64,000 nucleotides of DNA from Comamonadaceae bacterium. Its GTDB lineage: Bacteria > Pseudomonadota > Gammaproteobacteria > Burkholderiales > Burkholderiaceae_C. The notes under the pieces were generated by a model, which saw only the letters and a program-made list of their open reading frames with translations, searched no databases and was not told where the DNA came from. This document shows positions 48,450-54,507 of this stretch, piece by piece; the first letter of the stretch is position 1, and every line of letters begins with the position of its first letter. The stretch is taken from the NCBI GenBank assembly GCA_947456305.1, contig CANGPN010000005.1, forward strand, positions 1-64,000, read 5' to 3'. The position numbers were made by a program, and so were the translations under genes.

Positions 48450-48524
48450 GCGTGGTTAGCTCAGTGGTAGAGCATCGCCTTCACACGGCGGGGGTCGGGG
48501 GTTCAAAGCCCTCACCACGCACCA
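48450..48524 (+). tRNA. tRNA-Val(CAC), integration target
   Basis: A complete 75-nt tRNA with encoded ACCA. The acceptor pairs GCGTGGT with ACCACGC, and the anticodon loop TTCACAC gives anticodon CAC. The T loop reads TTCAAAG, less usual than TTCGAAA but still folding with a GGGGG/CCCTC stem. Its last 49 bases are repeated at 53426-53474, so the 3' part was probably supplied by the inserted element. Confidence 0.95.
48476..48524. repeat. Left attachment-type direct repeat
   Basis: The last 49 bases of the intact tRNA-Val gene, from the anticodon stem to CCA. They match 53426-53474 at 45 of 49 positions, with differences at 48478, 48495, 48505 and 48508. They act as the left boundary of the island. 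Confidence 0.85.
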
Positions 48525-48693
48525 TTTGCTTTTTTTATATATAAATCAAATACTTAAGTGCTTTTCAGGATTTACTTTTCTAGCAAATTTTATATGCTTC
48601 CCAAGGAAGCAAATTTTTAGACGACAAAAATATAATTACTAATAATCAATACAGAGTGTATATCCTAGTGGTATCTCAGTAAAAATTATCATA

Positions 48694-48712
48694 TGCTCAC
48701 GCAACGTGAGCA
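48694..48712. repeat. Perfect inverted repeat near the left end of the island
   Basis: TGCTCACG-CAA-CGTGAGCA, 8-bp arms and a 3-nt centre, lies 33 bp beyond the stop of the last island gene. No T run follows on the minus strand, so it is not a standard intrinsic terminator. It could be a protein-binding dyad (ParB- or recombinase-type) or a transcript end. The rest of the 220-bp gap after the tRNA shows nothing recognisable. Confidence 0.45.
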
Positions 48713-48744: not shown

Positions 48745-49623
48745 CTACTTATCCATAGATACAGTTTCAATGATGTTTATGAATTCGGTATAGACATCTG
48801 GTTGGTTTTGTTTAATGAATCGAGAGATTTCTTGGTTCTCTATAAGTTTCGAAAGATAGCCCTTTGCTAAAACTAAATTAAGTACGTCTTGTCCATACGA
48901 CTCTTCGACTAATTTGTATTGCTCATTGAGATTACCCATCTCCCGTTCCATCTTCAACAATTGCTCTGCACTTATGCCACGAAACTTTCTTGATCTTCCG
49001 TCTTCAATCAGCATGTGACTTGGGGTTGCTGCAAGTAAGGCCTGAGCGTAGGGTATTTTTATATTGTTTGCCGAAATCATTAATTCAACACATTCAATTT
49101 GCCGCGTTGGCTTCATCTTCCTAAGTATGTCGCTTAATTTTGTTGAGAAGACTTGATCTTTTAGTAGCTTTGTTGCCTCTGGACAAATCCCGTCAAGAAG
49201 CTTTACCTTACGCATAATTTGAGACAGATCTACATTCAGACTTGACGCCAATCTTTCTGGAGAAACACCTCTACTGATTGCTCGCTTTATCATTAAGTGT
49301 TCTTGTACAGTTGAGAGTCGATTGATTCGATTGTTATAGGTATAAGTCTCATCATCTGTGGAAATTAAGCATTGAGCGTCGTTTACTCCTAATTCTTGTA
49401 GTGCAAGTAGTCGTGCATGTCCATCCAATACTATGTGGTTGCCAGAGCTGGTTGTTGGGCTGATGATCAAAGGCTCAATCAAACCAACAGTTCTGAGCGA
49501 TTCAAGAATTTGTTTGTATTTTCGTGATGAATTCGTATTGAAAGGCAACTTCTTGCTTGGAAGCAGTAACGTGATGGAAACAACCAATGGATCTGGAATG
49601 AAGCCAAGTGCAATTTGATTCAT
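48745..49623 (-). CDS. ParB-like protein 2, RepB C-terminal type
   Basis: A 292-aa protein. The N-terminal third has a ParB/sulfiredoxin-like fold signature (LIISPTTSSGNHIVLDGHARLLALQELG, with the DGHxR box). An HTH-like stretch (GVSPERLASSLNVDLSQIMRKV) and a long helical C-terminal part follow. I assign it to the group annotated as plasmid-partition RepB C-terminal proteins. No ParA partner is present, and the island is chromosomal, so classical partition is unlikely. It overlaps ParB-like protein 1 by 4 bp (ATGA) and is last in the operon. Codon use is A/T-biased like the rest of the island. Confidence 0.75.
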   Translation of the reverse strand: MNQIALGFIPDPLVVSITLLLPSKKLPFNTNSSRKYKQILESLRTVGLIEPLIISPTTSSGNHIVLDGHARLLALQELGVNDAQCLISTDDETYTYNNRINRLSTVQEHLMIKRAISRGVSPERLASSLNVDLSQIMRKVKLLDGICPEATKLLKDQVFSTKLSDILRKMKPTRQIECVELMISANNIKIPYAQALLAATPSHMLIEDGRSRKFRGISAEQLLKMEREMGNLNEQYKLVEESYGQDVLNLVLAKGYLSKLIENQEISRFIKQNQPDVYTEFINIIETVSMDK

Positions 49624-50525
49624 AGCGCATGACCATTTGGCCAGACTCGATCAGCAACAAAACTAGGAAGAGTGTCTAATTTTTCAGCACGCAATAATGT
49701 AACAAAATTTTCATTGGAAAGTAGTGATCGAAGTGCGCCAATAACAAACATAAGTCGTTGTTGGGTGAAATCAGATTTTTTGATAAAAATCTTTTGTCTT
49801 TCAACTTCTCTTTTATAACTTCTTACAAGACTAGAGCTTGTAACTTCGGATGAGGCTCTCACTTTCGATCGAGGCCGTAAAGCCTTTCCTAATGTTTGAC
49901 GTTTGACAATCAATCTCCGCGCATTTATGAGCTGTTTACCCCGCAACTGACCAGATTCATAAGCATCATGAAGTGCACCTTGAATTGCTTTGTCATCAAC
50001 ACCCGCGCTACAGATTTCTAATGCAACATTAAGAGGAATTTTTCCTGATTCAACCGCAATCAAAAGGCGGTCTTCACCAAATTCGAGAAGGTGCAAGATG
50101 CCGTGGACGTAATCAATGCTTAAGCCCGTCTTTGCAGCAATGGTTTTTTTATCGTAGCCTTGCTCTTTTAGTCTTTGTATGCCGGCAAGCAGTTCTAATG
50201 GTCGACATTGCCGTCTAGCAATGTTTTCTGAGAGACTCATGATAAATGCATCATCATTGTCGATGTCAATAACCATTGCTGGTATTTCTGTCTCACCAAG
50301 TGCTTTAAAGGCTTTCATTCGTCCTTCGCCGCATACGAGAAGATACTTAGTAAGTCCTTCCGGTGTCTGCCTAGGGGTTACTGTAATTGGCTTCTTAAGC
50401 CCTATTTGCTTGATATTGCCAACAATATCCTCAAAGATTCTGGTATTCCTCTCGCGAGGATTGAGAACTTCAATATCTATGATGGGTATCAATCTCAATT
50501 TTGAATTTTCTTTATAAGTTTTCAC
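49620..50525 (-). CDS. ParB-like protein 1 (ParB/Spo0J N-terminal domain)
   Basis: A 301-aa protein with a clear ParB N-terminal domain: an N-terminal RLIPIIDIEVLNPRER, the box-II-like LVCGEGRMKAFKALG and the box-III-like MSLSENIARRQCRPLE. An HTH follows (YDKKTIAAKTGLSIDYVHGIL), and then a basic helical C-terminal half. ParB boxes II and III bind CTP in canonical ParB; here the GERR motif reads GEGR, so nucleotide use is uncertain. It overlaps the recombinase gene by 4 bp upstream and ParB-like protein 2 by 4 bp downstream, so the three proteins are made together. Confidence 0.82.
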   Translation of the reverse strand: MKTYKENSKLRLIPIIDIEVLNPRERNTRIFEDIVGNIKQIGLKKPITVTPRQTPEGLTKYLLVCGEGRMKAFKALGETEIPAMVIDIDNDDAFIMSLSENIARRQCRPLELLAGIQRLKEQGYDKKTIAAKTGLSIDYVHGILHLLEFGEDRLLIAVESGKIPLNVALEICSAGVDDKAIQGALHDAYESGQLRGKQLINARRLIVKRQTLGKALRPRSKVRASSEVTSSSLVRSYKREVERQKIFIKKSDFTQQRLMFVIGALRSLLSNENFVTLLRAEKLDTLPSFVADRVWPNGHAL

Positions 50526-52081
50526 GCAGCTCTCCTAAATCTTGTTCGTTCGGCCATTCCGTAAAGATAGTCGAGTGACTCAAATCTATATGTTTCAAAT
50601 TCGATGCTGTTACGTTCTGCTAAATTAAAACCACGCCCGCCAAAGTCAAGCCGTGGAAGTAGGTAATAGTCAATGGGAGATTGGTTAGCTTCATCAAGCC
50701 TAACTACAACGGTTATGTCGGGCTGAAGGCTTGTATCAAATCGGACTTTCCATCTTCTTGAGCCTATTGAAGTAGTTTGACAACGAGACAAAACTATTGA
50801 AACAGTGAATTCTCGATTGACTTCTAGAATGTCTGTCCCAATGTCACGTTCTGTATATCCACCTACATCGGCAATTTTTTGCTCGGTCTCACGGATTACT
50901 TGCGGGTGTAACTGGCGTAAGTAGCGATTGATTTCGAGAAATTTATAGTCTCTATCGGGTGTAAATCCAACGGTTTGATATGCGCGAATCAAGCTGCCAA
51001 AACGTTGAACGTAGGCTGATGAAGACGGCATACCCTCAGTTTCATCTATGATAATTCCGGAGAGAATGCCTCGATCTTTATACAGAGTTTTTAATTTTTC
51101 AATTAGTTCTTCATTTGTATATCGATGTCCGCGTGCTCGAATCATTCCTTGTACGGTATAAAAAATCTCTGTTGGAACCACGGCTTCAAATGCTGACTCT
51201 TTTTTTATCCACATCTGGGGTGTGTTGACTACACGATGTTTTTTTAATTTAAATGAAATTCTGTTGTAAACATTGTTGCCGATGTATTTTTCATTTGTTA
51301 AGACTTGATGGATAGTAGCGCGGGTCCAGGGTCTTCCAAGATCTGTTTTCCCTCCTATTTCATTCAGACGTTTAGCTATCTCTGATTCAACTAGTCCATC
51401 ATTTATGAACCATTCATAAATCTTATTTACAGTTTGAATTTCACTTTCTGGACCAGGCATAAGAATCACTCGATCCGTTTGCAAACTCTTATGTTCCCCG
51501 CGTTTTAACTCTGCCTTTAGTTCCCCACTCTGGTCAACCAAGACTCTGCGAAGGCCAAATCCCGCAGGCCCACCTTGCCGAAATCCAAGTTCAATTAGTC
51601 TGCATTGACCAGCAAATACTTTGGTTGAGAGTTCACGACTGTACTCTCCAGCCATTGCTCTTTTTACGCCTTTCACAATAGTTGATACTGGCGATCCATC
51701 ATTTTCAAATTGCTCTGCACAATAAGCTACTTGGATACCTGCTCGTCTACAGATGTACTCGTAATACGCACTTTCATCAGCATCTTGGAAGCGCCCCCAT
51801 CGACTAATGTCGTAAACCAGAATTATTTGAAAATCCGCTTTCCCAGATTCAACGATACGAATCAGTTCTTGCAATCCCTGCCGCCCCTCAATCCTCAAAC
51901 CACTCTTGCCTTCATCAGCATAGGTTCGGATAATCTCAATTCCTCGCTTGTTTGCATACTCATAAATTTTGTCGGATTGGTTTTCTGTTGAATACTGTTG
52001 GTGTTCAGTCGACATGCGTACATACTTCACAGCTTTGAACAACGATTTTTGAACAGATTTTTCGATTCCAGTTTGTGCCAT
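50522..52081 (-). CDS. Serine recombinase (resolvase/invertase family, long form)
   Basis: A 519-aa recombinase. The resolvase domain (about 15-165) has the catalytic serine S24 in YVRMSTEHQQYSTENQ, then DEGKSGLRIEGR and VYDISRWGRFQD. A recombinase domain (about 170-300) has the motif GFRQGGPAGFGLRR and ends in WTRATIHQVLTNEKYIGNNVYN. The C-terminal 200 residues lack the CxxC pairs of the zinc ribbon of large serine integrases; only one cysteine is present there. It begins the recombinase-ParB-ParB operon. It could integrate/excise the island or act on another site. No good Shine-Dalgarno sequence is seen before 52081. Confidence 0.9.
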   Translation of the reverse strand: MAQTGIEKSVQKSLFKAVKYVRMSTEHQQYSTENQSDKIYEYANKRGIEIIRTYADEGKSGLRIEGRQGLQELIRIVESGKADFQIILVYDISRWGRFQDADESAYYEYICRRAGIQVAYCAEQFENDGSPVSTIVKGVKRAMAGEYSRELSTKVFAGQCRLIELGFRQGGPAGFGLRRVLVDQSGELKAELKRGEHKSLQTDRVILMPGPESEIQTVNKIYEWFINDGLVESEIAKRLNEIGGKTDLGRPWTRATIHQVLTNEKYIGNNVYNRISFKLKKHRVVNTPQMWIKKESAFEAVVPTEIFYTVQGMIRARGHRYTNEELIEKLKTLYKDRGILSGIIIDETEGMPSSSAYVQRFGSLIRAYQTVGFTPDRDYKFLEINRYLRQLHPQVIRETEQKIADVGGYTERDIGTDILEVNREFTVSIVLSRCQTTSIGSRRWKVRFDTSLQPDITVVVRLDEANQSPIDYYLLPRLDFGGRGFNLAERNSIEFETYRFESLDYLYGMAERTRFRRAA

Positions 52082-52151
52082 GGCTTATATTCGTTTTGAT
52101 TTATCTTTTCCCAGACTACCGCCTTCACAGCAAAAGTGCATTCGCAAGAAC

Positions 52152-52194
52152 AAAAAGTCCATTGGTAAAAATGTAACCAGTGGACTTTTTTTTT
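52152..52194. terminator. Intrinsic terminator inside the island
   Basis: A 15-bp stem (52152-52166 with 52176-52190, one G-U) and 9-nt loop are followed by T runs on both strands. It lies between the recombinase start and the upstream four-cysteine protein gene. It should end that gene's transcript, so the recombinase operon needs its own promoter or read-through. Confidence 0.85.
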
Positions 52195-52233
52195 GCTATC
52201 AAGTTATCTCTTTATTTGTGATGACGAGTAAAT

Positions 52234-52665
52234 TTAGCTGTCATCAAACTTAGTAAGTTCAATAATCCATACATCCATCTTATGCTTTGGTTTATCTAAC
52301 ACTTTTAGTACAAATACACCTTCCTCTATCCCATTCCAAGTAGGCTTACGAAGTTTGTTACCTGGATGTTGCGGTACCTTTTTCTTGTGCACTTCGTTAG
52401 ATTTATTCTTTTCAAGATCTGATGCTTCGGTTGAATTTCTTGCATTTTCTCGATGATTTCGCCAATAGTCAGGATTGCGATCTGCCCATGCACGTTGGGC
52501 TCTGTATTGGTTATCTTTATAGTCTTGATCTACTTTTCTTTTCTGCTTTTGCCATTCTCTTCTTCTCTCTTTTTGGCAAGCTACCTTAGAGCAATAGACT
52601 TGATTGGGTACCTGAGGAATACGTTCGAAGAGTTCTGAGCAATTGATACAACGTAAATTTGACAT
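52234..52665 (-). CDS. Small basic four-cysteine protein (putative zinc-binding)
   Basis: A 143-aa protein. The N-terminus has C-x2-C and, after about 15 residues, C-x4-C (CINC ... YCSKVAC), fitting a zinc knuckle. A strongly basic stretch (QKERRREWQKQKRKVDQDY) and an aromatic NPDYWR motif follow, then a separate C-terminal beta-like segment (VFVLKVLDKPKHKMDVWIIEL). It is probably nucleic-acid-binding. I have an unverified impression that similar proteins accompany the recombinase/ParB pair in other genomes. Expressed from its own unit, ended by the terminator at 52152-52194. Confidence 0.72.
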   Translation of the reverse strand: MSNLRCINCSELFERIPQVPNQVYCSKVACQKERRREWQKQKRKVDQDYKDNQYRAQRAWADRNPDYWRNHRENARNSTEASDLEKNKSNEVHKKKVPQHPGNKLRKPTWNGIEEGVFVLKVLDKPKHKMDVWIIELTKFDDS

Positions 52666-52890
52666 AGATGTTCTCCAGTTTGTTGATGGACTGGAAACAT
52701 CGCTGTGAAATGATTTCTTTTAATGGCAGAAAGATTTTTTTCTGCTTTTATTACGCGCAATCGAGCATGTAGCAACTGTTATTTGGAAATAATTGCGTAA
52801 TTTCTTTGCCGAAAATTAATTTATGTTTGAATAATAAAAATTCCTATCTTTTGTAAAATTAACGTTTTCCTAGAAATGATGGTCAATTTT

Positions 52891-53217
52891 TTAGTTGCAA
52901 CTTGCAACTACATCACAATCTTCATCTTGTAATGAGATCGATAAATTTTCATACATAAGATTACTAGACAAAATTTCAGATTTAATAGATCCTAGTGCTG
53001 CTCCAATTTCTAATTGCTCAAGTTCGGATGTGCCAACAGGTAGGCTCACACTAATCAATTTGAGACTTGGATTGAATGCAATGGTGTAGTTGCTTGAAGT
53101 GCTCCAGTTCACAGCATCATCTAGACACTGGATCCAATTTTTAATGCTGGATTCTGTGCACTCAGTTGGAGCAAGTTGATAATTAATTCGTGCGTATCTA
53201 ACTTTGATTGTTTTCAT
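52891..53217 (-). CDS. Hypothetical protein of the island, 108 aa
   Basis: A 108-aa, mildly acidic protein with no signal peptide, membrane segment or motif I recognise. It has alternating hydrophobic strands (YTIAFNPSLKLISVSL) and helices. The last codons overlap a perfect 9-bp-arm palindrome (TAGTTGCAA-C-TTGCAACTA, 52892-52910). It is the most upstream island gene, 226 bp before the four-cysteine protein, with no close homologue evident by eye. Function unknown; it could be a control protein or cargo. Confidence 0.6.
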   Translation of the reverse strand: MKTIKVRYARINYQLAPTECTESSIKNWIQCLDDAVNWSTSSNYTIAFNPSLKLISVSLPVGTSELEQLEIGAALGSIKSEILSSNLMYENLSISLQDEDCDVVASCN

Positions 53218-53425
53218 AGCTACTTTCTTCAGTGTCTGAGATGTTGAGTTAGCTTATTGAAAAAGTCAACCGTCAAAACTCTTTACGCTTGCTGTGCTAA
53301 AAGCTCTAAAATTGCGCAATAAATTAATAATTTAAGATTCATTACTATACTACTTGTATGCTACTTTGATAAATTAAATGGCTGTTAAGTTGTTGAATTA
53401 CAATGGAAAATTGGTGATTATCCGG

Positions 53426-53474
53426 CGTCTTCACACGGCGGGGGGCGGGGGTTCGAAACCCTCACCACGCACCA
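53426..53474. repeat. Right attachment-type direct repeat (partial tRNA-Val)
   Basis: A 49-nt copy of the tRNA-Val 3' part with no 5' half, so it is not a functional tRNA. It contains the canonical T loop TTCGAAA and ends in CCA. If integration was at the tRNA 3' end, this is likely the original chromosomal end and the left copy is element-borne (inference). Confidence 0.85.
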
Positions 53475-53499: not shown

Positions 53500-54507
53500 T
53501 CATTTATTGGACCGAAAGTTCAAAAGTTTTTTTAACTTACTAAGCAGCTTACCAGTCCAATTCATAGACAAAGACTCAGGCTCAGGTGATTCCATGTACT
53601 TTTTGCTGTTCTCCATGAACGGTATCAAATCCATGGCTGGCTCGTGTCTTGCAGGTGCAGCGGTTTCAGGTTGCGGTGCTTGCATTGAGGCTTGTGGCGG
53701 CTGGGTGCTGTACTTTTTCAACTTTAAAGTCCGTCCCAGCTTTGCCACCATTGCAGCATCCCATGTAGCAGGGTGCTCTACGCCGTATTGGGTCCACACT
53801 TCCATTTGTGGCAACCGCTTCTTAGATTGTTCTGCCACTGTCAAAGGACAAATCCTGCTGTGCGAGTTGTGCAGCAATATGATTTTCCCGTGATAGGCAT
53901 TCAGCAAAGTGTGAAATTGCATACCGAACAAATCGTATTCATAAGCCAAATCAAAATGAGCTGTTGTGTGAACTGCATTGACTGCACGCGGATCAATCGA
54001 TAATAAATCTAATTTATGCTCTGAATGTTTGATTTGTTGATAAAGCGCCATCAACGATGACCAATGCAAACTTGCGCCAATATCATTAAGTATCAAACTA
54101 TGAGCTTTGACTTTTTGTCGATGCGCCAGGTACATGGCCAGTATGCCGCCCATGCTGGTGCCTATGAAATGGATTTTTTGATTTGCATCCCTTGAGGGCC
54201 TGCTTGACAGCGCTGAAATTAAATCTTCAATATCCGCCAGATAAACAGAAGTTGAATAATTTTGATCTTCAGGCAGTGGGTCGGAATACCCCCGGCCGCA
54301 ATAGTCCAGGCTGATCCAGCAGCAATGCTCAAAATCAGTGACCTGACTCCACAACAAATCAAAACTGTCTTGTGTTTCTAAAAGTCCGGGCAGACAGACA
54401 AACAGGTGTTTCGCTTCCAGCCCGCCAAGTTGTTTGTAGGCAATGCGACGCGTGCCACTTTCTTTGTGAACCAGGTGGTGGTGGATGACGGGTACTTCAA
54501 CTGGCAT
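53500..54507 (-). CDS. Alpha/beta hydrolase
   Basis: A 335-aa alpha/beta-fold protein. The nucleophile elbow is GTSMGG, the cap/acid region LLHNSHSRICPLTV, and the histidine in YGVEHPATWD. The first 270 residues form the fold. The last 65 are a proline/glutamine-rich linker plus a lysine/leucine amphipathic end (TGKLLSKLKKLLNF), which might touch membranes (inference). No signal peptide. It is the first chromosomal gene beyond the island, in the opposite direction to the next genes. Substrate unknown. Confidence 0.8.
   Translation of the reverse strand: MPVEVPVIHHHLVHKESGTRRIAYKQLGGLEAKHLFVCLPGLLETQDSFDLLWSQVTDFEHCCWISLDYCGRGYSDPLPEDQNYSTSVYLADIEDLISALSSRPSRDANQKIHFIGTSMGGILAMYLAHRQKVKAHSLILNDIGASLHWSSLMALYQQIKHSEHKLDLLSIDPRAVNAVHTTAHFDLAYEYDLFGMQFHTLLNAYHGKIILLHNSHSRICPLTVAEQSKKRLPQMEVWTQYGVEHPATWDAAMVAKLGRTLKLKKYSTQPPQASMQAPQPETAAPARHEPAMDLIPFMENSKKYMESPEPESLSMNWTGKLLSKLKKLLNFRSNK

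What the first reader, a model, noticed from the sequence alone, without database searches (positions are those of the whole stretch)
48745..52665. Candidate undescribed system: serine recombinase, two different ParB-like proteins and a four-cysteine protein
Seen: recombinase (50522-52081), ParB-like 1 (49620-50525) and ParB-like 2 (48745-49623) form one leftward operon with two 4-bp ATGA overlaps. A small zinc-knuckle-type basic protein sits just upstream. There is no ParA, replication or conjugation gene. Known: ParB/RepB proteins normally work with ParA in partition, and DGHxR-type folds also occur in nucleases. Inference: strict coupling of a recombinase with two ParB-like proteins suggests one DNA-processing machine (integration, excision control or defence). 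I have an unverified impression that this set recurs in other bacteria.
Basis: partly seen in the sequence, partly recalled or inferred. Interest (0 to 1): 0.82.

Follow-up and report, generated by a model that had tools for sequence, protein, structure and literature searches.

The report
Gene-moving enzyme with two partners
This is a piece of mobile DNA whose cutting-and-pasting enzyme nearly always travels with the same two DNA-binding partner proteins in many Proteobacteria, which suggests a DNA-moving machine of an unusual build that no paper we found describes.

Summary
A serine recombinase (50522-52081), ParB1 (49620-50525) and ParB2 (48745-49623) form one leftward operon with two 4-bp overlaps (one GTGA, one ATGA). 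A four-cysteine protein (52234-52665) sits upstream. The coupling is not local. In 398 Pseudomonadota genomes, 22 besides this one hold a full-length recombinase of at least 52% identity: 20 have ParB2 beside it, and the other two have ParB1 and then the contig ends. Of 174 strong matches in fetched loci, 154 have ParB1 then ParB2. Units occur in virus-like contigs, plasmids and islands. Three insertions of one 8.7-kb element share near-identical ends, so the module belongs to mobile elements. The recombinase lacks the zinc ribbon of large serine integrases. Both ParBs have the ParB fold with altered, highly conserved pocket residues. I infer that they control the recombinase at DNA ends. In this window the unit lies in a 4.95-kb, 38.5% GC island between tRNA-Val and a displaced tRNA-Val tail. 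One island end matches islands without the trio, one of them with a tyrosine-type integrase, so the tRNA insertion cannot safely be credited to this recombinase. Not a known partition cassette; defence role not shown.

The parts
48450..48524 (+). tRNA-Val(cac), intact; left border of the island
   Evidence: ARAGORN. Its T-loop region GGTTCAAAGCCC differs from the GGTTCGAAACCC of three congeners G723, G729, G736.
48476..48524 (+). Repeat copy 1: 3' part of tRNA-Val, from anticodon stem to CCA
   Evidence: Direct repeat of 49 nt, 92%
48595..48611 (.). Palindrome TGCTTCCCAAGGAAGCA between ParB2 and tRNA; candidate protein-binding site
   Evidence: the palindrome count of this 220-bp stretch was reached in 4 of 500 shuffles and in 3 of 290 window tiles
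48694..48712 (.). Palindrome TGCTCACGCAACGTGAGCA; candidate protein-binding site
   Evidence: same test
48745..49623 (-). ParB2 (RepB/ParB-like, DGHxR motif), 292 aa
49620..50525 (-). ParB1 (ParB/RepB-like; GLKKP, GEGR, ENxxR motifs), 301 aa, GTG start
50522..52081 (-). Serine recombinase, 519 aa (Resolvase + Recombinase domains, no zinc ribbon found)
52149..52193 (.). Hairpin with T-run between the four-Cys gene and the recombinase (terminator-like)
   Evidence: Inverted repeat I3; sequence
52234..52665 (-). Four-cysteine basic protein (C6, C9, C25, C30), 143 aa; an upstream homologue is found in 96 of 174 strong recombinase matches
52671..52698 (.). Imperfect palindrome just before the four-Cys gene; several relatives have palindromes at the same place (operator-like)
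   Evidence: Seen by eye; inference
52891..53217 (-). 108-aa ORF, no family match, inside the island
53257..53411 (.). Island arm homologous to the far end of a tRNA-Val island in congener G719, and found in other congeners, all without the recombinase
53426..53474 (+). Repeat copy 2: displaced tRNA-Val 3' tail; its T-loop region matches the three congeners

Best explanation
The genes are the recombination module of a family of mobile elements. The serine recombinase cuts and rejoins the element ends. ParB1 and ParB2, encoded in the same operon with overlapping genes, are inferred to bind palindromic DNA near the ends as ParB-type nucleotide-gated clamps and to decide when the ends may synapse and in which direction, work that canonical large serine integrases do with their own zinc ribbon and coiled coil plus a separate directionality factor. 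The four-cysteine protein is inferred to be a regulator or an extra DNA-binding subunit. Shown here: near-obligate coupling, conserved order, intact catalytic residues, missing zinc ribbon, ParB fold, conserved pocket motifs, and a shared block with near-identical ends in different contexts in relatives. Inferred: translational coupling, nucleotide gating, end binding, control of direction. In this window the module lies inside a tRNA-Val island whose far end belongs to an island type that in one congener has a tyrosine-type integrase, so here it is probably nested in, or has replaced part of, an older island.
For: Coupling: 20 of 22 full-length recombinases of at least 52% identity in 398 genomes have ParB2 beside them; ParB1 was looked for in 16 of the 22 and found in all 16, including the two cut by contig ends. 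29 of 30 genomes with ParB2 (own included) have a recombinase match. 154 of 174 strong matches have ParB1 then ParB2; 15 are incomplete at record ends; of the other five, two have both by tblastn. In 68 complete trios, distance matrices agree (r 0.93-0.96; best permutation 0.40), and the next gene starts 3 bases before the stop in 61 of 68 recombinase-ParB1 and 44 of 68 ParB1-ParB2 junctions. Catalysis: R22, S24, R94, R97 invariant in 152 sequences (their roles are recalled). No zinc-ribbon family in 10 of 10 by Pfam; CxxC after residue 160 in 3 of 151. ParB fold: best PDB matches are Noc, ParB with nucleotide, and KorB for both models (mean pLDDT 75-76). Pocket: GLK(K/R)P, GxGR and ENxxR in all 104 ParB1; in 107 ParB2 each residue of GxxEP and DGHxR is kept in at least 101. 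Mobility: one 8.7-kb element at 94-97% identity in three contexts begins TGGTGGTGTAGT and ends CAGCGGCACC within a few bases.
Against: No empty site, circular form or activity was shown. The end motifs mapped in relatives were not found in the window (searches was run on loci, 116 also on the window for the left end). No ParB-binding motif is shared across the family: a palindrome beyond all 20 shuffles after ParB2 was found in 12 of 109 loci against about 5 expected. Recombinases at 37-46% identity in six genomes of one genus have no ParB2 match, and none of 24 weaker matches in fetched loci has both ParBs, so the ParBs are not required by every relative. tRNA tails lie near only a minority of modules, and where they do, the module may be a passenger: L035's element also lies about 120 bp from a tRNA-like tail (by eye).
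Confidence: 0.5

Rival explanations
1. The ParB pair is a maintenance device: it partitions or stabilises the excised circle (or a plasmid carrying the element), while the recombinase alone moves it.
For: Both proteins are RepB/ParB-type with the ParB fold, and ParB2 relatives occur on plasmids (107 records with a match).
Against: No ParA is named among 94 annotated features in five stretches around the trio (these gene tables are incomplete). Two different ParBs are kept together with the recombinase, also in chromosomal contigs and in small units. Overlapping genes fit a joint complex better.
Confidence: 0.2
2. The module is cargo of ordinary tyrosine-integrase islands: the islands move by their own integrase and the trio does something else, such as regulation or conflict with other elements.
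For: The far arm of this island matches that of islands in congeners without the trio. G719's island at the same tRNA has a tyrosine-type integrase beside the tRNA (my reading of the C-terminal motif, Pfam gives only SAM-like matches just below cut-off). In congener G851 the trio lies near the far end of a region with a clear phage integrase beside tRNA-Ser. In G849 it lies 1.2 kb from a displaced tail that I read as tRNA-Cys. Tails with CCA pointing away also lie 320 bp (L094) and 502 bp (L071) upstream of the four-cysteine gene, and by eye about 120 bp left of the L035 element.
Against: The 8.7-kb unit has its own ends in L035, L041 and L097, with unrelated flanks. In one viral-contig group a tRNA-Met-like tail lies 1.9-2.1 kb upstream of the recombinase in six of eight members, a gap filled by a Fic or AbiEi-like gene and a small ORF where read, with no room for an integrase. 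Catalytic residues are invariant.
Confidence: 0.25
3. A known plasmid partition cassette that happens to lie next to a recombinase.
For: Automatic annotation calls the genes plasmid partitioning protein RepB and ParB/RepB/Spo0J.
Against: No ParA named in the stretches read; fixed three-gene order in a phylum-wide sample; chromosomal and virus-like locations. ParB1 matches the RepB equivalog models of NCBIfam far below their cut-offs.
Confidence: 0.04

Closest known systems
Large serine recombinases / serine integrases (A118, phiC31, SPbeta YokA)
   Same: Catalytic Resolvase domain and PF07508 Recombinase domain; about 520 aa. Among solved chains that match, the only full-length ones are YokA (SPbeta), alone and fused to YotN; the best match there covers the Recombinase domain.
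   Different: No zinc ribbon or CxxC, whereas the solved Listeria phage integrase has a zinc ribbon with an inserted coiled coil (PMC3783163, abstract and passages). ParB-type partners. That known directionality factors are not ParB-like is recalled, not tested.
Dehalococcoides ssrA-specific islands (DsiB/DsiA integration module)
   Same: CcrB-like serine recombinase with a ParBc-domain gene in one integration module next to the attachment site (PMC3146451, passages).
   Different: One ParB gene of 210 aa, not two; other genes between; second small recombinase, RecF-like and Mom genes; tmRNA target.
Paracoccus prophages with serine recombinases
   Same: Serine recombinases in prophages; one active phage with a predicted tRNA-Met site, and a cluster of 11 without identified sites (PMC6536676, passages). 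Our viral loci L124-L131 carry the trio, six of the eight with a tRNA-Met-like tail upstream.
   Different: The passages read do not mention coupled ParB genes; whether our loci are those phages was not tested.
ParB/Noc/KorB CTPase family
   Same: Fold and domain order of the N-terminal half.
   Different: The Q of GLLQP is K/R in ParB1 and E in ParB2; GERR becomes GEGR/GQGR in ParB1 and DGHxR in ParB2; no ParA named nearby.

Membership tests
Large serine integrase | Catalytic Resolvase domain with active-site serine and arginines | tested here: met
   R22, S24, R94, R97 invariant in 152 (roles recalled)
Large serine integrase | PF07508 Recombinase domain | tested here: met
   10 of 10
Large serine integrase | Zinc ribbon (with inserted coiled coil) in the C-terminal part | tested here: not met
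   No recombinase zinc-ribbon family among hits at E up to 1 in 10 of 10; CxxC after residue 160 in 3 of 151
Large serine integrase | Site-specific integration of an element between defined ends | tested here: inconclusive
   Ends mapped in L035, L041, L097; same left end in L019, L034, L039; no empty site or activity shown
ParABS partition system | ParA ATPase encoded nearby | tested here: not met
   None named in 94 annotated features of five stretches (gene tables incomplete)
ParABS partition system | ParB fold with CTP pocket motifs | tested here: inconclusive
   Fold yes; hydrolysis-type residues altered (their role is recalled)
ParABS partition system | Clustered parS sites | tested here: inconclusive
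   No family-wide motif; two palindromes in the window
Dehalococcoides ssrA-GI module | Target ssrA/tmRNA and DsiA, RecF, Mom genes | tested here: not met
   Window border is tRNA-Val; the ORFs taken as genes of the island are the trio, the four-Cys protein and a 108-aa ORF, with no such family match
Known defence system | Match to a PADLOC defence model | tested here: not met
   Two weak matches for ParB2 (2.5e-05, 0.0038), none for the other four proteins at E up to 1
tRNA-borne integrative island | Intact tRNA plus displaced 3' tail bounding DNA of foreign composition | tested here: met

The most novel reading that the evidence does not exclude
A distinct class of site-specific recombination machine in which a serine recombinase without zinc ribbon is gated by two ParB-type clamps bound at the element ends, so that a nucleotide-switch protein of the partition family, freed from ParA and chromosome segregation, controls DNA synapsis and direction of transposition.
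Probability: 0.33. Interest if true: 0.85.

Novelty: new variant of a known kind. Interest (0 to 1): 0.62.

Why it matters
Serine integrases are important genetic tools and vehicles of gene spread, and their control of direction is a central question. A widespread family whose recombinase is tied to two ParB-type proteins would link the CTP-switch field with site-specific recombination and could give a new, switchable integration tool.

Tried and rejected
Plasmid partition cassette: rejected (no ParA named in the stretches read, fixed coupling to a recombinase). Defence system: two weak PADLOC matches for ParB2 only; AbiE, Fic and other genes are neighbours that change between loci. My own first reading, that this recombinase integrated the island into tRNA-Val, was downgraded after one search showed that the island's far end matches a congener island with a tyrosine-type integrase and no trio. 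The left ends of the two islands are not similar.

tRNA targeting as a rule for the family: rejected. A complete tRNA within the search range was found in 9 of 135 loci with ParB2. In the same 135 loci, tRNA-like 3' tails within 5 kb numbered 13 upstream and 3 downstream, five of the 13 from one group of related viral contigs.

A shared parS-like motif: not found. An end palindrome recurs in one subgroup; in viral contigs its pattern occurs only in four records, all known to carry the trio. The left-end motif occurs in three viral records, one already known and two not read.

Empty site in congeners: the right-flank hydrolase has no relative at E 1e-20 in 59 other genomes of the family. None of seven congener dnaQ-tRNA-Val regions (two cut by contig ends within 2 kb), nor the G721 tail region, has a match to the window's right-flank proteins. 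G849's left flank is 97% alike in G833, but G833 carries another island there with its own tail copy, so no empty site was seen. Empty site for the Paraburkholderia units: a search of 60 genomes of G515's genus, which may not be theirs, found nothing and says nothing. A chromosomal eut-araC locus hosts units in several Paraburkholderia; homology ends at the same place in three of them but at other places in others.

Rows left out of counts: five partial recombinase matches of at least 52% identity (in G414 two, G546, G325, G630) were not counted among the 22; one of them (G414) has ParB2 beside it. The fetched loci are the best 80 of 573 and of 122, so they lean towards close relatives.

Literature: no paper on the recombinase with two ParBs was found. 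This rests on searches in the PMC open library only. Passages of PMC9658991, PMC9203015 and PMC6563490 showed no such arrangement.

Errors of my own, corrected: one search used a wrong spacing and was repeated; one search miscounted ParB1 and was recounted (use). On checking this report I lowered the best explanation from 0.55 to 0.5, raised the cargo rival from 0.2 to 0.25 and lowered the novel case from 0.35 to 0.33, because the tRNA-like tail beside the L035 element had been left out.


Full report
What is in the window. The stated ORFs exist at the stated coordinates. The recombinase has Resolvase and Recombinase domains and an HNH_repeat match below its cut-off; ParB1 and ParB2 are both RepB/ParB-type. 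Long matches to two PHROG families of unknown function (31451 for ParB2, residues 15-291 of 292; 3951 for ParB1, residues 5-262 of 301) show that relatives are known from viruses. The overlaps are GTGA and ATGA. The four-cysteine protein and a 108-aa ORF have no curated family (PHROG gives the four-cysteine protein a weak HNH match at 0.039).

An island at tRNA-Val. The block lies between tRNA-Val(cac) 48450-48524 and a 49-nt, 92% copy of its 3' part at 53426-53474, 4950 bp apart. GC is 38.5% inside against 54.4% and 51.6% beside it. Three congeners (G723, G729, G736) have the tRNA-Val with GGTTCGAAACCC. The displaced copy in the window has that form, while the intact tRNA has GGTTCAAAGCCC. 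This is what integration into a tRNA leaves: the old tail displaced, a new tail brought in. The tRNA-Val site is a hotspot: congener G719 has tail copies 29.6 kb and 37.3 kb downstream of the tRNA end.

Who integrated the island is not settled. The 155 bp just inside the displaced tail (53257-53411) align with the same place in G719's first island (score 64; 1000 shuffles at most 23). That island has a tyrosine-type integrase beside the tRNA (Pfam gives only SAM-like matches just below cut-off), and G719 has no recombinase of this family. Most of the arm also matches four more congeners (G876, G852, G834, G874) and parts of it two others (G854, G846), all six without the recombinase. So the island type exists without the trio, and the trio may be nested in it or may have replaced its integrase. 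Of 84 genomes of the genus, four including this one carry the recombinase. In G851 the trio lies near the far end of a region with a clear phage integrase beside tRNA-Ser; a 13-nt piece of that tRNA lies 650 bp beyond the four-cysteine gene, which alone could be chance. In G849 the trio is 1.2 kb from a displaced tRNA tail that I read as tRNA-Cys. These cases speak for nesting in islands.

The trio is a unit. A phylum-wide sample of 398 genomes was searched with the recombinase and with ParB2 (the handles agree, so I take the samples as the same). Besides the own genome, 22 hold a full-length recombinase (at least 480 residues aligned) of at least 52% identity. Twenty have ParB2 beside it; in the other two, ParB1 follows and the contig ends. 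ParB1 was looked for in 16 of the 22 and found in all 16. Five partial matches of at least 52% were left out of this count. Eight recombinases of 41-47% in seven genomes still have an adjacent ParB2-like match, while those of six genomes of one genus at 37-46% have none. Of 30 genomes with ParB2, 29 have a recombinase match; the one without has a stop inside ParB2. Fetched loci, chosen for high similarity and therefore biased, give the same picture: of 174 recombinase matches of 700 bits or more, 154 have ParB1 then ParB2, 15 are incomplete at record ends, and five show one only. Two of these five (L019, L095) have both by tblastn; three (L034, L069, L119) have a shortened ParB1 and no ParB2. 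Of 24 weaker matches none has both. The four-cysteine protein is upstream in 96 of 174, and in 90 of the 103 closest. In 68 complete trios, chosen by length and spacing, the distance matrices correlate at 0.93-0.96 against at most 0.40 in permutations, and the next gene starts 3 bases before the stop of the last in 61 and 44 of 68.

Where it lives. The trio is on plasmid records of Methylibium, Agrobacterium, Sphingobium and Variovorax, in a fecal contig filed as phage, and in many IMG/VR contigs, where neighbours include phage tail and GTA-type genes. Elsewhere neighbour clusters, each named from one scanned member, are AbiEi, AbiEii, Fic, an SNF2-type helicase, TniQ and TniB, and a DUF3987 protein directly or soon after ParB2 in 20 loci.

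Ends of the elements. Loci L035 (Lysobacterales bin), L041 (Thauera sp. 2A1) and L097 (IMG/VR) share an 8.7-kb block at 94-97% identity with unrelated flanks. It begins TGGTGGTGTAGTCCCC and ends CAGCGGCACC, within a few bases in all three. By eye, a tRNA-like tail lies about 120 bp left of the block in L035. The same left end opens the block of L019, L034 and L039. L019 and L039, with L024, L025 and L029, have another right end: ATTTCGCT-like repeats after the DUF3987 gene. Several other pairs share only the stretch from just before the four-cysteine gene to the end of ParB2. L035 carries AbiEi, AbiEii and an M78-type protein between the left end and the module. Two modules lie about 25 kb apart on one contig of P. 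aspalathi, and L059 has two trios plus a third recombinase. These units therefore move or are exchanged as blocks. I did not find an empty site, so the target rule is unknown.

How it may work. The recombinase keeps R22, S24, R94 and R97 in all 152 sequences, so strand exchange is likely intact (the role of these residues is recalled from the resolvase family). No zinc ribbon was found by Pfam in 10 of 10, and a CxxC after residue 160 occurs in only 3 of 151. In a Listeria phage integrase the zinc ribbon contacts the half-site and the coiled coil is used in synapsis (PMC3783163, abstract and passages). Something else must do that here, and the coupled proteins are the obvious candidates. AlphaFold models (mean pLDDT 75.8 and 75.2; pTM 0.45 and 0.47, so domain placement is uncertain) match Noc, nucleotide-bound ParB and KorB best. 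ParB1 keeps GxGR and ENxxR in 104 of 104 but has K/R where ParB has the Q of GLLQP; ParB2 has E there in 105 of 107 and DGHxR in place of GERR. From memory, that Q and the E of GERR serve CTP hydrolysis, so binding may be kept and hydrolysis changed. I therefore propose that ParB1 and ParB2 are nucleotide-gated end-binding proteins that license synapsis. This step is inference. The window has two perfect palindromes between ParB2 and the tRNA (count reached in 4 of 500 shuffles), but no motif is shared by the whole family.

What is known. The nearest described arrangement is the Dehalococcoides ssrA island module, with one ParBc gene beside a CcrB-like recombinase (PMC3146451, passages). Paracoccus prophages have a cluster of serine recombinases with unidentified sites and one active phage with a predicted tRNA-Met site (PMC6536676, passages); our viral group L124-L131 has tRNA-Met-like tails 1.9-2.1 kb upstream of the recombinase in six of eight. 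I found no paper that describes the recombinase with two ParBs (searches; open PMC library only).

Verdict. A real and widespread recombination module, undescribed as far as these searches reach; new variant of a known kind, with a testable chance of being a new mode of recombination control.

Noticed in passing
G719:C12 (L245-L247): Two tandem islands at tRNA-Val(cac), with displaced tail copies 29.6 and 37.3 kb downstream; the first has a tyrosine-type integrase beside the tRNA. G719's intact tRNA-Val differs from the window's also in its 5' half.
   Followed up: partly
L035 4838-13550, L041 4851-13550, L097 55-8768: A complete 8.7-kb element in three contexts (AbiEi/AbiEii and an M78-type protein identified in L035); by eye, L041 and L097 begin just after terminator-like hairpins.
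   Followed up: partly
L014 13334-14683 and 19 other loci: A protein cluster (the scanned member is DUF3987) follows ParB2 in 20 loci; in L014 it overlaps ParB2 by 4 bp. A possible fifth module gene that the window lacks.
   Followed up: partly
L046, L068, L071 (Paraburkholderia and a Burkholderia): Units lie beside a chromosomal eutBC-araC locus; chromosomal homology ends near ...GGATAAGTGGG in these three but elsewhere in L038 and L089.
   Followed up: partly
L256, L262, L263 (G301, G477, G594): Recombinases of 40-46% identity from one genus without ParB partners; their neighbours were not studied.
   Followed up: no
G833:C1 345000-364900 (L353): The site beside the G849 island holds in G833 another island with a second copy of the same tRNA-like tail about 14.7 kb on.
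   Followed up: no
window 53500-54507: Alpha/beta-hydrolase right of the island has no relative at E 1e-20 in 59 other genomes of the family.
   Followed up: no
L124-L131: Related viral contigs, six of eight with a tRNA-Met-like tail upstream of the trio; ARAGORN calls a complete tRNA-Met in two of them (L125, L131).
   Followed up: partly
L339, L340: Two IMG/VR contigs that hold the left-end motif and were not read.
   Followed up: no
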